From the IMG/VR virus record IMGVR_UViG_3300017963_000459, positions 1 through 38,953 of that record: a stretch of 38,953 nucleotides of DNA; one strand, 5' to 3'. Below are positions 1-38,953 of this stretch, piece after piece. The stretch's first letter is position 1, and every line of letters starts with the position of its first letter. Under the pieces are notes generated by a model. That model did no database searches and was not told the DNA's origin. It saw nothing but the letters and a program-made list of their open reading frames with translations. Position numbers and translations under genes: made by a program. Source of the DNA: a virus.

Positions 1-92
1 AGAACTGGGGAAAAAACGGGAACCCTAAGCCGGAGAAATGGTAAGGGAATCCGAGCGGAAGTCAGAAGTTAACATCTCTGACACGCGCAACG
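1..92. repeat. Left copy of 92-bp terminal direct repeat
   Basis: These 92 bases are identical to 38862-38953. Joining the copies gives a 38,861-bp circle and makes the gene order continuous from capsid to leader to fibre. The repeat lies inside the structural gene block, not at the terminase or at an origin. It is therefore best read as the overlap left when a circular or circularly permuted genome was assembled, not as a physical terminal repeat. Confidence 0.9.
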
Positions 93-320
93 CATAGAGG
101 GTGAACCTAGAAATAGAATATAACCCCTCCACGAGTCCCCGGCCCCTGAGAAGGGTGAAAAGGTATGCTGAGCTTATAAGAAATTATAAGAACCAAGAGA
201 TAAAAAGCTTTTGGGATAACAACCTGATAGAAACACGTTTGTACTGGAATACTTCAGTGTTTACTGACATGAGATGTCAGGGACGTATTATAAGTGGCAT
301 TGTAAACGCTACTTCATAGT
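1..320 (+). ncRNA. Structured non-coding leader RNA upstream of the fibre gene
   Basis: This interval has no convincing gene but is rich in RNA-like structure. At 173-190 there is a perfect 7-bp stem closed by a GAAA tetraloop. At 264-280 there is a perfect 7-bp stem with a GAG loop. GAGGGT at 97-102 can pair with the CCTC-containing stretch at 123-129. The first 90 bases are purine-rich with short GGG and CCC blocks. On the circle the element begins about 9 bases after the capsid stop and ends just before the fibre ribosome-binding site. Some stretches (ACTGGGGA near 4, ACCCTAA near 22, GAGAAGGGT near 148) remind me of group II intron domain I-III segments. I see no reverse transcriptase and no domain V, so the family is open. 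Confidence 0.5.
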
Positions 321-327
321 AACTTAA

Positions 328-358
328 GGGGGGGACACCCCCCTCTTCTCTTAGAGGG
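328..358 (+). promoter_or_regulatory. Two mutually exclusive hairpins at the fibre ribosome-binding site
   Basis: Seven G residues (328-334), ACA, then six C residues (338-343) form a very strong 6-bp hairpin. The last three C residues plus TC (341-345) can instead pair with GAGGG (354-358), which is the Shine-Dalgarno sequence of the fibre gene starting at 366. Forming the first hairpin frees the ribosome-binding site and forming the second hides it. No long U-run follows, so control of translation is likelier than termination. This is inferred from base pairing only. Confidence 0.45.
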
Positions 359-365
359 AATGAGT

Positions 366-23120: not shown

Positions 23121-23840
23121 ATGAAAAACGTAGTCAAAACCAATCATAGAACTGCGATAACAGCAGAAAATAGAGAGAGGGTGATAATTGACCATATTCC
23201 GCTAGTTGATTATATAGTCAAATCTAAATATCGTATAAAAGACAGGGTTTGCATGGACGAATTAAGATCAGCAGGGTTGTTGGGGTTAGTTAAGGCGGCC
23301 AACAACTTTGAACCACAAGGTACTTTATTCAAAACGTACGCTGAACATAAAATAAATGGGTCTATATTGGATTACTTAAGATGTCTGGATGCTCTCCCTA
23401 TCAACATTAGACAATGTCTTAAGAAAATCGAAGAGGTAGATAACCAATCTAAGGTTAAAACAGGCAAAGGTCTCACAAATGAGGAATTATGCAAGGCGCT
23501 AGATATCAAAATAAACAGGTTGTATCATATCCATGATTGTATTGAGTTTGAATCATTTAAACATCCAACGTGTCAGGAAAATGATCCGTTTCTTTTGTTA
23601 GAAAAGAATATGTTTAATAAGAAAATACATGAGGCCATAGAGCAACTTCAAGACAGAATGAAAGCAACAATAAAACTAATGTATTTTGATGGATTAAATG
23701 GAACTGAAATATCAAGGATATTAGGGGTGTCTCCTCAACGAGTATACCAAATACGACACGAGTCCATAAGATCGTTAAAAAGGAAGTTGGGGTATTACAT
23801 TAAAGTTACCTGCAATCAACATGAATGTAGTCAGTCATGA
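23121..23840 (+). CDS. Sigma factor of the FliA/WhiG type
   Basis: A 239-aa protein with the domains of a sigma70-family factor. Region 2 covers about residues 20-90 (LVDYIV, DELRSAGLLGLVKAANNFE, FKTYAEHKINGSILDYLR). A region 3-like part covers about 95-145, and region 4 covers about 170-225 with the helix-turn-helix GLNGTEISRILGVSPQRVYQ. Lack of region 1 and the 'RINGSILDYLR'-like signature place it near the flagellar/sporulation sigma28 class. It should redirect host RNA polymerase, most likely to late genes, since the phage has no RNA polymerase of its own. A stand-alone rightward gene, its 3' end overlaps the endolysin gene by 35 bp. Confidence 0.9.
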   Translation: MKNVVKTNHRTAITAENRERVIIDHIPLVDYIVKSKYRIKDRVCMDELRSAGLLGLVKAANNFEPQGTLFKTYAEHKINGSILDYLRCLDALPINIRQCLKKIEEVDNQSKVKTGKGLTNEELCKALDIKINRLYHIHDCIEFESFKHPTCQENDPFLLLEKNMFNKKIHEAIEQLQDRMKATIKLMYFDGLNGTEISRILGVSPQRVYQIRHESIRSLKRKLGYYIKVTCNQHECSQS

Positions 23841-24198
23841 CTCTGCAATATGGGAATACAGTCATACATGTAGTTACTAAACTCTTTTCCAAAGAATAAT
23901 CTTCTGGAATATCCAAGTCGACAGCATTTCCAGTTAAATGATGTGAATATGGGTGTCCACCTATGTTTTTGTTATATGACACTGTTCTATAACCGGAAGT
24001 TATAATCATAGGTTTACCATACATTCTTCTCGCTATGTCTAAGTGGTGTAATAGTTTATAACTAATAATAACTATTTCACTCATATCACGACATGCAAAT
24101 TCTTTTAAAAGAAAATGGTCTATAACTTGTCTGTTAGGTTTTTCGTTTCTAGTTATTAGCACAAGACTTGCATTATTAGCATCTAATATGTTTTCCAT
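23806..24198 (-). CDS. Endolysin, M15-family peptidase
   Basis: A 130-aa protein with the zinc peptidase signature of the M15_3 (VanY-like) group: SGYR at 68-71, S-H-H-L-T-G-x-A-x-D at 85-94 (zinc ligands His87 and Asp94) and the final H-V-D at 126-128 (His126 as third ligand). Such phage enzymes cut peptides of peptidoglycan at lysis. It is a bare catalytic domain without a cell-wall-binding module or signal peptide, so it needs a holin. It is last in the leftward arm, separated from the holin candidate. AGGAAG precedes ATG. The last codons overlap the sigma gene on the opposite strand. Confidence 0.85.
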   Translation of the reverse strand: MENILDANNASLVLITRNEKPNRQVIDHFLLKEFACRDMSEIVIISYKLLHHLDIARRMYGKPMIITSGYRTVSYNKNIGGHPYSHHLTGNAVDLDIPEDYSLEKSLVTTCMTVFPYCRVMTDYIHVDCR

Positions 24199-24205
24199 AA
24201 CCTTC

Positions 24206-24532
24206 CTATATTGCGTTTACAGCTTCAGAAAATGGACCAAATAATCCAGTCATGACATCAAGAAGCTCTCCCTTTTCTAACATTTTGTCGTATAACCCAA
24301 AGCAATCATCCTCTTCAGAATATACGACTGCGCAATGTGGGTCTTCTGGGTCAGTGATAACCCAGAAGTCTTTTTTTTCAATATAATTAAAATCAGTGAA
24401 CAAATTTATTTTATATGGTTCAATCTTAGCAGTTTGATACCAATCTTTCATGTTGCAAACATCATTAGTTATATTATGAATATCCATCTCAATTAGCTCT
24501 TGTATTCTTTCCTTAACTCTTGAATCTTCCAT
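24206..24532 (-). CDS. Acidic protein, candidate immunity protein
   Basis: A 108-aa, strongly acidic protein starting 3 nt after the stop of the secreted toxin-like gene (24536-25729), with AAGGAT before ATG. The pattern is helix, then strands with Trp/Phe and Asp-Pro-Glu-Asp-Pro turns, then a helix (EKGELLDVMTGLFGPFSEAV). Small acidic proteins encoded directly after a polymorphic toxin are usually immunity proteins that block the toxin's active site. I cannot place it in a named immunity family. If the upstream gene is not a toxin, this may be an unrelated early protein or a lysis regulator, since the endolysin follows 7 nt later. Confidence 0.55.
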   Translation of the reverse strand: MEDSRVKERIQELIEMDIHNITNDVCNMKDWYQTAKIEPYKINLFTDFNYIEKKDFWVITDPEDPHCAVVYSEEDDCFGLYDKMLEKGELLDVMTGLFGPFSEAVNAI

Positions 24533-24535
24533 TTT

Positions 24536-25729
24536 TTATCCTTGTGGGTATACTCTATGTGTCTTAACAACACTCTTCGCATCCTTCCATTTTGAACCAT
24601 TAAATTCTTGAAAATGAGCGTGTGGTATTTCGTTACTTTGAATACTTTTTATGTCTACTCTAAACTTGCGTTTACCATCTTTTGACAAAAGGACTAAGTC
24701 ATTATGCCTATTATGTATCATTCTAGCATCTTTCCCTATCCAAGACACGATATCATCTGCGGCATTTTTGATAGTATTTACTACGCCTTTGACTTCTTTA
24801 AGTCCAGCATGTCCTGTCTCTGAGACTTGTTTCATTTCATTGAAAAATTCTTTGCCATTTATTTTCAGTTTATATAATACCTGCGAGACTCTAGATAACG
24901 AGTCACTCCCAAGTCTATAACCTGCTCTTCCAAAGTAGACGACAGTGTCTACCACACCGGTCATCATAAACTCTCTAGCTAGAACTTTCACACCTTTATA
25001 TGTTAACTTCCCCACAAGGTAGGTCATACCAGCATAGGCAAACAAGTCTTCTGGATACGTGTTCTCTAACCCTGGCTCTTGATAGATACCATGCATGCTA
25101 TTCCCACCTTGGGTCATTTTGAGTACACCTTCTTTACCTATTGATTTCAAATAATCATTAAATAAAACTAACTCTTTTTGTTTAGGAACTATTTCCTCAA
25201 GTGACTTATTAATTACTGGAATTGCTTGGGCCGCATTAGTTGGGTCCTCTAACATCTTATGAGAGTTTGCATCAAGGACTAATTCCTCGTCGCTATACTC
25301 ATCTCTAAGTGCTTCCTGTAATTTAAGATCAACACTGGCAAAGGTTTTTAAATCGCCAGCACCCATATCTCGAATAATTGCCATCCTGCTTTCATAATTG
25401 TTTCTATAGTAATCTCTAAATTCAGGAATTCTTTGATGTCCAAAGTAAACCTTACTATCCAAAGAATTATAACTAAACCACTCGTCATCATTCCCTTCGG
25501 CAATAGTGACATGTGCACCTGTTACAGTTTCAATTGGATCAATTACAACATCCTCTACAGTGTCGGATATAAGATCGCAAACTCCATCCAAAAATTTTCT
25601 AACGTTATCATACACGACTCTTTGCATGAACCCATCTCGTCCAGTAATCTTAAACTTCCAAGCATAGGTATTAGCTGACGCTAACGATAGACATAATAAA
25701 AACATAATTAAATACGGTTTTAATTTCAA
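24536..25729 (-). CDS. Secreted protein with polymorphic-toxin-like C-terminus
   Basis: A 397-aa protein starting at TTG 25729, chosen because AGGAG lies 5 nt upstream and because it opens a clean signal peptide: MKLK, then a hydrophobic core (PYLIMFLLCLSLASA, about 5-20), with a likely cleavage site near residues 22-23. The middle is a mixed helical region. A hydrophobic stretch lies at about 246-285. The last about 75 residues read like toxin modules at the end of bacterial polymorphic toxins: W-(I/L)-GK-D-A-x-x-I, then LLSKDGKRKFRVDI, then PHAH, then NGSKWKDA, then RVYP. It recalls the Ntox24-type domains, from memory. It could be exported by Sec. An acidic gene follows in the immunity position. 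A lysis-related exported protein is the alternative. Confidence 0.6.
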   Translation of the reverse strand: MKLKPYLIMFLLCLSLASANTYAWKFKITGRDGFMQRVVYDNVRKFLDGVCDLISDTVEDVVIDPIETVTGAHVTIAEGNDDEWFSYNSLDSKVYFGHQRIPEFRDYYRNNYESRMAIIRDMGAGDLKTFASVDLKLQEALRDEYSDEELVLDANSHKMLEDPTNAAQAIPVINKSLEEIVPKQKELVLFNDYLKSIGKEGVLKMTQGGNSMHGIYQEPGLENTYPEDLFAYAGMTYLVGKLTYKGVKVLAREFMMTGVVDTVVYFGRAGYRLGSDSLSRVSQVLYKLKINGKEFFNEMKQVSETGHAGLKEVKGVVNTIKNAADDIVSWIGKDARMIHNRHNDLVLLSKDGKRKFRVDIKSIQSNEIPHAHFQEFNGSKWKDAKSVVKTHRVYPQG

Positions 25730-25741
25730 GGTAACTCCTAA

Positions 25742-25872
25742 ATGTTTTATAGGGGGGGGACAGCTTTCACTGCCCCTGTAAACGAGATACAACTGATCTA
25801 TATTCGGAGGTCGTAGTTCACGAAAATGATCAGTTGATAACTCATACTCTTATACTAGATCACAACTGTCAA
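25742..25872 (-). promoter_or_regulatory. Leader region of the secreted-protein gene
   Basis: This gap between two leftward genes holds TTGACA (minus strand, 25872-25867, a possible -35 element with no good -10), a 9-bp inverted repeat (CAACTGATC at 25790-25798 and GATCAGTTG at 25828-25836, 29 nt apart) and a hairpin around a run of eight G residues on the plus strand (25752-25759; minus strand GGGGCAG with CTGTCCCC). The hairpin ends about 10 nt before the ribosome-binding site. The gene may have its own controlled promoter. Confidence 0.45.
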
Positions 25873-30927: not shown

Positions 30928-31483
30928 ATGCGCACACACACAACTACTTAAAACAAAGAATATACAACCACATCCAAAAAACAGAAACAAGCATTCAGAA
31001 AAACAAATAAAAGTTTTATCAAAGATTATAAAAAAAAATGGTCAACGTTCACCAATAGTTATTAGTAAACGAAGTGGATATATAACCAAAGGGCATGGAC
31101 GATTAGAGGCGATTAAGCTTTTGGGTTGGGAAGAATGTGCTGTTGACTTGCAGGATTATGCAAGCGAAGAAGCGGAACTAAGAGATAGGATTGCTGATAA
31201 CGAAATAGCTAGGTATGCTGAGTTTGATAACATAGGGTTCATCGAAGACTTGGGTGAATTAGATTTAAATGTTGATGATATTGATTTCAAAGATTTTGGT
31301 ATTATTAAAATTGAATTAGCAACACCTTTAAATCTAAACGAGTCTAGTCCGCAACCACAAACCATGCAGGAATATTTAAGTAATTGTAATCAAACAGAAA
31401 ATGGAGAACCAATAAAAGAAAAGGAAGTAGACGAAAATATTAAAACAAATGAAGAGTGTCCAAATTGTGGGTATAAATGGTGA
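30902..31483 (+). CDS. ParB-like nuclease-domain protein with C-terminal zinc ribbon
   Basis: A 193-aa protein with AAGGAG before ATG 30902. Residues about 15-105 follow the ParB/Srx domain pattern (NIQPHPKNRNKHSEKQIKVL, then PIVISKRSGYITKGHGRLEA, then ARYAEFDN). The GHGR motif binds a phosphate. The last residues contain CPNCGYKW, half of a zinc ribbon. In many phages such a domain is fused to or next to a DNA methyltransferase, and here the methyltransferase overlaps by 7 bp. It may recognise DNA or control the methylase. A partition role is unlikely because there is no ParA. Confidence 0.8.
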   Translation: MKVKQMNIKCAHTQLLKTKNIQPHPKNRNKHSEKQIKVLSKIIKKNGQRSPIVISKRSGYITKGHGRLEAIKLLGWEECAVDLQDYASEEAELRDRIADNEIARYAEFDNIGFIEDLGELDLNVDDIDFKDFGIIKIELATPLNLNESSPQPQTMQEYLSNCNQTENGEPIKEKEVDENIKTNEECPNCGYKW

Positions 31484-32487
31484 AACCTACAGTTATCAGT
31501 ACATTTTGTGGAACAGGCGGTAGTTCATTAGGATATAAACTTGCAGGATATAAAGAGTTATTGGCAATCGATTTTGATCCAAACGCTGTGAAGTGTTTTA
31601 GGGAAAACTTTCTGGATGTCCATTGTTGGGAGAGATCAGTTGTTGATGTTACAGGACAAGAGATATTAGATTTTTGTAACTTAAAAAAAGGAGAGTTGGA
31701 TGTTTTAGATGGATCCCCTCCTTGCCAAGGGTTTAGCGCTGCAAACGCAAAAAACGCAAACAACATTAATGATCCAAGGAATAGTTTATACAGGCACTAT
31801 CGGCGACTGATAGAAGAGCTTTGCCCTAAAGTTTTTGTTATGGAAAATGTCCCTGGGATGATTAAAGGAAAAATGAAAGGTAAGTTTATTGAGATAATGA
31901 ACTCATTAAAAGAGCTAGATTACAAAGTAAAATGTAAGTCTATGAATGCTAAATACTACAACGTTCCACAATCAAGGTAAAGACTAATCTTTATAGGAGT
32001 TAGAAAAGACCTAGAAGTAGAGCCAGTGTACCCAGTGCCAAATAACAAAATTGTAACTATTAAAGAGGCCTTGGAAGGTGTAACTGCAAAAACGTTTGCA
32101 AACATAAAATATCCAATTGAACTAATGAAGCAAATACCACAAGGAAAAAATATAACAAGTGCTAGTAAAGAGTTAGTTGACAAGTATTTCCCCAAGCTTC
32201 TTTCAAAAAAGTTTATGAAAGACATTATGAGGCGAGATAGTTGGGATAAACCTACGTGTACAGTAATTAAAATGTTTATTCCCTTTGCAATGGAACCTAA
32301 AATACACCCAGCAGAGCATAGGTATTATTCTATCGAGGAATTGTGTGCTCTTTGTTCATTCCCAACAGATTGGAAGTTTGCAAATTTAAATTACGTACAA
32401 CGACATGCAAGACTAGGGAACGCTGTTATGCCTAACTTCATGAAGGCAATAGCCGAAACAATTAAAAAAGAGATATTAAAAACGTAA
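31477..32487 (+). pseudogene. Cytosine-5 DNA methyltransferase broken by in-frame TAA
   Basis: A 336-codon frame encoding a C5-methyltransferase. Motif I FCGTGGSSLG is near residue 9, motif IV GSPPCQGFS (catalytic Cys) near residue 78, motif VI ENVPG near residue 125, and motif VIII QSR is followed by what should be ER-L-I-F-I-G-V. Codon 168 is TAA (31978-31980) where related enzymes have Glu (GAA), so a single G-to-T change explains it. The frame then continues without other errors through the target-recognition part to motif X GNAVMP near the end. No restart site is seen after the stop. Truncated protein lacks motifs IX-X. All other genes use TAA normally. Confidence 0.85.
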
Positions 32488-38852: not shown

Positions 38853-38861
38853 GTAATCACG

Positions 38862-38953
38862 AGAACTGGGGAAAAAACGGGAACCCTAAGCCGGAGAAAT
38901 GGTAAGGGAATCCGAGCGGAAGTCAGAAGTTAACATCTCTGACACGCGCAACG
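38862..38953. repeat. Right copy of 92-bp terminal direct repeat
   Basis: Identical to bases 1-92; see the left copy. It holds the start of the structured leader RNA that lies downstream of the capsid gene. Confidence 0.9.

What the first reader, a model, noticed from the sequence alone, without database searches (positions are those of the whole stretch)
24206..25729. Phage-encoded secreted toxin-like protein with a possible immunity partner
A 397-aa protein with a clean signal peptide ends in about 75 residues that read like a polymorphic-toxin domain (LLSKDGKRKFRVDI, PHAH, NGSKWK, RVYP). Only 3 nt later a 108-aa acidic protein follows, the usual immunity position. A lytic-looking phage carrying an exported toxin plus immunity would be unusual. 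It could exclude rival phages or cells, protect the host, or act at lysis with the neighbouring endolysin.
Basis: partly seen in the sequence, partly recalled or inferred. Interest (0 to 1): 0.82.

Follow-up and report, generated by a model that had tools for sequence, protein, structure and literature searches.

The report
Phage-carried exported toxin and likely immunity
A phage probably infecting Bdellovibrio-like bacteria carries an exported protein ending in a small toxin domain that many bacteria put on the tips of their anti-rival weapons, followed by a likely antidote gene; no toxicity, protection or role has been shown.

Summary
In detail: on the minus strand, a 397-aa protein with a Sec-type signal peptide (24536-25729) is followed after 3 nt by an acidic 108-aa protein (24206-24532) and then by an M15-peptidase endolysin.

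The toxin guess for the tail is supported by homology. An HMM built from relatives only, without the window, picks this one ORF of 560 at E=6.5e-20. The relatives are C-terminal tips of RHS and Sec-exported proteins in Chlamydiota, Bacillota, Verrucomicrobiota and Bdellovibrionota. Nearly all are followed at once by a small gene, from at least four unrelated families. That is the pattern of a polymorphic toxin with swappable immunity. No Pfam or NCBIfam model covers the domain.

The closest relative found is from Bacteriovoracaceae (33% over 156 aa).

The 108-aa partner is supported only by position, charge and analogy. It has no homologue, and its predicted structure was poor. The toxin model is a helix plus a strand meander with no significant structural match, so the enzyme class is unknown.

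The nearest phage relative has an unrelated lipoprotein in the same slot, so this looks like an accessory cargo ("moron") site. Phage-borne toxin-immunity pairs are known. New here are the toxin family, the Sec export and the endolysin operon.

The parts
24536..25729 (-). Exported toxin-like protein, 397 aa, TTG start with AGGAG Shine-Dalgarno
   Evidence: ORF and translation; no whole-protein homologue in 50,697 phage genomes or IMG/VR
25661..25729 (-). Sec-type signal peptide, residues 1-23 (LKLKPYLIMFLLCLSLASANTYA)
   Evidence: sequence; strongest hydropathy peak of the protein
24791..25009 (-). Pre-toxin helical region, residues 241-313, shared with a Bacteriovoracaceae toxin ORF
   Evidence: BLASTP 33% over residues 241-396, E=1e-22 for the single comparison
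24539..24790 (-). C-terminal toxin domain, residues 314-397; conserved WxG, R-x-D, P-H-x-H and Y-P retained
   Evidence: tblastn E=5e-6 to an RHS-array tip; window-free HMM E=6.5e-20; AF2 pLDDT 82.6
24206..24532 (-). Putative immunity protein, 108 aa, net charge -14, starts 3 nt after the toxin stop
   Evidence: position, charge; no homologue
23806..24198 (-). M15-family peptidase endolysin, same operon
   Evidence: Peptidase_M15_3 E=1.6e-15; phrog_894 endolysin E=1.1e-23
25730..25868 (-). 139-nt leader of the toxin operon with a 9-bp inverted repeat (25790-25798 / 25828-25836) that could be an operator
   Evidence: no sigma-70 promoter above chance found; role inferred

Best explanation
This is a phage-borne polymorphic toxin-immunity cassette. 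The infected cell makes the 397-aa protein and exports it through Sec to the periplasm, and its basic C-terminal ~80 residues are the toxic enzyme. The acidic 108-aa protein made from the next gene binds that domain in the cytoplasm and protects the producing cell, so the phage can finish its cycle. Because the endolysin follows in the same operon, lysis would release the stored toxin, which then acts on neighbouring cells or competitors that lack the antidote. Shown here: the homology of the domain to toxin tips, the operon layout and the accessory character of the slot. Inferred: export, toxicity, neutralisation, release and target. The enzyme is most likely a nucleic-acid-cleaving one (predicted helix plus strand meander, conserved R-x-D and H-x-H), but this is a guess from topology.
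For: The domain is found at the C-termini of RHS-array proteins and Sec-exported proteins across four phyla. In 12 of 12 pattern-found loci, and in 26 of 27 parsed Chlamydiota loci where the sequence continues (my count, including L055), a small same-strand ORF starts within about -20 to +23 nt. Those partners fall into at least four unrelated families, as expected of swappable immunity. The window-free HMM gives E=6.5e-20. The residues conserved across the family (R50, D52, H63, H65 of A6) are intact in the window. The protein shares 156 aa with a Bacteriovoracaceae toxin ORF. A Chlamydiota genome shows the same layout of signal peptide, toxin domain and immunity gene, plus an orphan tip and its own small gene (L039). 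In the nearest phage (TerL 87% identical) an unrelated 227-aa lipoprotein sits between the same endolysin and the same upstream genes.
Against: The 108-aa partner matches no database family and no known partner family (hhalign probability 0.4% to the main one; the others were compared only by eye). The structure search gave no significant toxin-fold match. The fused toxin-partner model was poor (pLDDT 66, partner blocks 30-71) and supports no interface. The first PH of the PxPHxNPHxH motif and the DVPH tail are missing in the window copy. No known trafficking domain is recognised in the N-terminal part, so how the toxin would enter another cell is unknown. A phage gains no obvious benefit from poisoning future hosts.
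Confidence: 0.55

Rival explanations
1. Superinfection exclusion or envelope factor: the phage has taken a toxin-derived protein and uses it in the periplasm to block a second phage's DNA or receptor; cell killing is not its job.
For: The nearest phage carries a lipoprotein in the same slot; lipoproteins and periplasmic proteins are common exclusion factors (general knowledge). Orphan secreted proteins with the same R-x-D and PHxHLE core exist in Bdellovibrio-type genomes, mostly without an adjacent partner, so a non-antagonistic extracytoplasmic use of the fold exists.
Against: An acidic gene sits in the immunity position, and the family-invariant residues are intact; a domesticated domain would need neither.
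Confidence: 0.2
2. The toxin homology is real but the 108-aa protein is not its immunity; it is an unrelated early or lysis gene, and the phage tolerates the toxin because it is exported and the cell is doomed.
For: No homologue of the 108-aa protein was found anywhere. The phage operon is tightly packed, so 3-nt spacing alone is weak evidence.
Against: Family-wide adjacency of small partner genes; opposite charges of the two proteins; the nearest phage lacks both the toxin and this gene at the same site.
Confidence: 0.15
3. Intracellular toxin-antitoxin or abortive-infection device: the toxin acts inside the infected or lysogenic cell, with export as a way of keeping it harmless until triggered.
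For: A prophage-like contig carries the same domain without a signal peptide, with two immunity-like genes, between an HNH endonuclease and a terminase gene (L030).
Against: The window copy has a clear signal peptide and a long N-terminal part, unlike toxin-antitoxin toxins.
Confidence: 0.1

Closest known systems
RHS / secreted polymorphic toxin systems (Zhang et al. 2012, PMC3482391)
   Same: C-terminal toxin domain swapped among different N-terminal carriers, small immunity-like gene directly downstream, unrelated partner families for one toxin domain; relatives of this very domain sit at RHS tips.
   Different: Carrier here is a phage protein with a signal peptide and no recognised trafficking domain; the toxin domain is not covered by Pfam or NCBIfam.
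MuF polymorphic toxins of temperate phages (Jamet et al. 2017, PMC5576092)
   Same: Phage-encoded polymorphic toxins.
   Different: MuF toxins are fused to a capsid/packaging protein and thought to be injected with DNA; here there is no MuF domain match, the gene is outside the packaging module and the protein is exported.
Toxin-immunity cassettes of Mycobacterium prophages (MabR/McProf, PMC9434293)
   Same: Phage-borne exported-type toxin plus downstream immunity gene.
   Different: Those carry WXG100 domains for type VII secretion and lie in integrated prophages; here Sec export, no integrase, next to an endolysin.
BECR-fold RNase toxins (Ntox50, colicin E5/D clades; PMC3482391, PMC12700104)
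   Same: Predicted order helix, four strands, short fifth strand fits the described BECR topology; an Ntox50 domain occurs in Clostridium phage phiC2 (PMC3482391).
   Different: No significant structural match to any solved BECR toxin and no sequence match.

Membership tests
Polymorphic toxin system | C-terminal toxin domain shared with otherwise different carrier proteins | tested here: met
   Same domain on RHS arrays, a Sec-exported TPR protein and the phage protein
Polymorphic toxin system | Secretion signal or trafficking domain at the N-terminus | tested here: met
   Sec-type signal peptide by sequence and hydropathy; no predictor available; no other trafficking domain
Polymorphic toxin system | Small cognate gene directly downstream | tested here: met
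   108-aa ORF 3 nt downstream; same arrangement in nearly all relatives
Polymorphic toxin system | Downstream protein neutralises the toxin | not testable with these tools
   needs co-expression; partner has no homologue and a poor model
Polymorphic toxin system | C-terminal domain is toxic | not testable with these tools
   homology only
MuF phage toxins | Fusion to a MuF capsid/packaging domain | tested here: not met
   no such match in Pfam, NCBIfam or PHROGs
BECR-fold RNases | Helix followed by a four-stranded meander with significant structural similarity to a known member | tested here: inconclusive
   topology fits; no PDB match at E<=0.001, a CDI toxin-immunity entry only at rank 23, E=2.4
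DUF4160 / LPD3 | Match to the family profile | tested here: not met
   best E 0.046 and 0.028, not significant; DUF4160 profile comparison aligns only the PHxH motif, probability 13%
Type II toxin-antitoxin | Small cytoplasmic toxin without export signal | tested here: not met
   397-aa protein with signal peptide

The most novel reading that the evidence does not exclude
A phage without an integrase stockpiles a Sec-exported, bacteriocin-like toxin in the periplasm of its host and releases it with its own endolysin at lysis, with a phage-encoded antidote keeping the factory alive until then; the toxin enzyme is a new family used across several bacterial phyla.
Probability: 0.22. Interest if true: 0.78.

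Novelty: new variant of a known kind. Interest (0 to 1): 0.5.

Why it matters
If the pair is real, phages that lack an integrase can carry exported weapons against other cells, not only temperate phages through capsid-borne or type VII routes. It also points to a widespread, uncatalogued toxin domain with a two-gene test that any laboratory could run, and to Bdellovibrionota as a likely host group in which phage cargo and bacterial weapons are exchanged.

Tried and rejected
Whole-protein and domain searches of IMG/VR and phage genomes with the window sequence found nothing. The first genome scan with a two-row alignment failed; a hand-made DNA pattern for W-x3-G-x-[IVM]-Y-P-x-D-[VIM]-P-H then found 12 loci, so the family sample leans towards that tail motif, which the window copy lacks. 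Hits H2, H3, H4, H5 and the weak Bdellovibrionota hits L023-L026 were set aside as chance-level. Membership in DUF4160 and LPD3 was considered and not supported. The fused toxin-partner model (stop TAA read as Q) was tried as a proxy for a complex; its low confidence supports nothing. In alignment A5 the N-terminal ends of two rows (L048, L054) were typed inexactly; A5 was used for the family and PDB scans and the DUF4160 comparison only. The load-bearing results rest on A3 and on A6, which is made from exact DNA references. The idea of an RNase fold was not confirmed by structure search. A promoter before the toxin gene was looked for; promoter matches were at chance level.

Full report
What is there. 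The window is an IMG/VR virus record with 92-bp identical ends, so it looks like a complete, terminally redundant genome. On the minus strand, three genes follow closely: a 397-aa protein (24536-25729), a 108-aa protein (24206-24532, 3 nt gap) and an M15-peptidase endolysin (23806-24198, 7 nt gap). The 397-aa protein begins with a Sec-type signal peptide without lipobox. The last 84 residues carry net charge +7 and the 108-aa protein -14.

Is the tail a toxin domain? Pfam, NCBIfam and PHROGs give no family for either protein, and the whole protein has no match in 50,697 phage genomes. The last 78 residues, however, match a protein in the plasmid of Protochlamydia naegleriophila, 33% identity, E=5e-6. 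That match lies in a run of RHS-repeat and RHS-associated genes and is followed by an 80-aa ORF. A DNA pattern taken from that relative found 12 more loci, in Chlamydiota, Bacillota, Verrucomicrobiota, Bdellovibrionota and one unclassified MAG. In 11 of them the domain closes a longer open frame; in L013 only a fragment remains. Each is followed by a small gene. Profile searches added 23 of 151 Chlamydiota genomes (some are the same loci), further Bacillota and Bdellovibrionota. An HMM of 12 relatives without the window picks only this ORF among 560 six-frame ORFs, E=6.5e-20. This answers the chance question.

Partners. The small genes downstream fall into at least four unrelated groups: a 79-82-aa group (MRILD..SDKKL), a 57-67-aa group (EECTDSY...IKIPKRFESLW), a 67-70-aa group (L063, L070) and an 83-aa one (L067). 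The window partner fits none by eye, and a profile comparison with the first group gives 0.4% probability. Unrelated partners for one toxin domain are normal for polymorphic toxins, so this does not count against immunity; but it leaves that role resting on position, charge and analogy.

Carriers. One Chlamydiota genome shows a signal-peptide protein ending in this domain, its small gene, then an orphan tip with its own small gene (L039). A prophage-like contig carries the domain without a signal peptide and with two small genes (L030). Bdellovibrio-type genomes carry short secreted proteins with the R-x-D and PHxHLE core and mostly no partner. The window protein shares residues 241-396, not just the toxin domain, with a Bacteriovoracaceae ORF at 33%.

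Host and setting. Relatives of the phage terminase include a Silvanigrella phage (27%; the rest of the phage hits are Pelagibacter phages) and two Bdellovibrionota genomes. In one of these, virion genes stand next to bacterial genes. With the toxin's nearest relative in the same phylum, Bdellovibrionota is the likeliest host group (inference). The closest phage record, L031 (TerL 87%), has the same endolysin (38%) and upstream genes. In place of the toxin pair it has an unrelated 227-aa lipoprotein. The site therefore behaves as a cargo slot. There is no integrase, but an XRE-type repressor-like gene is present, so the lifestyle is open.

Mechanism. Across the 13 sequences of A6 the invariant residues include R50, D52 and H63, with H65 nearly so; the window keeps all of them. 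AlphaFold gives a helix followed by a strand meander (pLDDT 82.6). This fits the described BECR layout of an N-terminal helix plus a four-stranded meander (PMC3482391). Foldseek against the PDB and BFVD found nothing significant, so an RNase activity is a guess. The most likely working model is export of the toxin, protection of the producing cell by the 108-aa protein, and release at lysis; only the homology and layout are shown.

Comparison with what is known. Phage-borne polymorphic toxins are described as MuF fusions in temperate phages (PMC5576092) and as WXG100 cassettes in mycobacterial prophages (PMC9434293). This case differs in its carrier (Sec-exported, no MuF or WXG100 match), in its place beside the endolysin, in the lack of an integrase, and in a toxin domain that no Pfam or NCBIfam model covers.

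Verdict. The finding is real and its toxin reading is right in kind. It is a new variant of phage-borne toxin-immunity cassettes, with a toxin family not yet in the curated libraries searched. The ecological story remains untested.

Noticed in passing
window 1-240 and 38853-38953: Non-coding element between the capsid gene and the tail-protein gene: its first 113 bp are 100% identical to the end of L031 although the genomes are about 79% identical, and parts of window 1-360 occur at about 70% or more identity in 15 unrelated phages, once under a homing-endonuclease annotation. No Rfam family matches. Possibly an intron or structured RNA.
   Followed up: partly
L088 / L091-L092 (G214): A terminase relative in a Bdellovibrionota genome has five in-frame TAG codons, which may mean TAG is read as an amino acid there.
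   Followed up: no
L018-L022, L067: Short secreted proteins of Bdellovibrio-type genomes share the R-x-D and PHxHLE core of the toxin domain, mostly without an adjacent partner gene; they might be domesticated, secreted enzymes. L067 is a similar domain on a long Chlamydiota ORF with an 83-aa partner.
   Followed up: partly
L030:5866-6883: Prophage-like contig with the same toxin domain without signal peptide plus two tandem immunity-like genes, between an HNH endonuclease and a terminase gene.
   Followed up: partly
window 31477-31980 and 32026-32487: A cytosine-C5 DNA methyltransferase appears split into two ORFs (sequence reading only).
   Followed up: no
L031:2629-3312 (-): 227-aa lipoprotein of unknown function occupying the cargo slot next to the endolysin in the sister phage.
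   Followed up: partly
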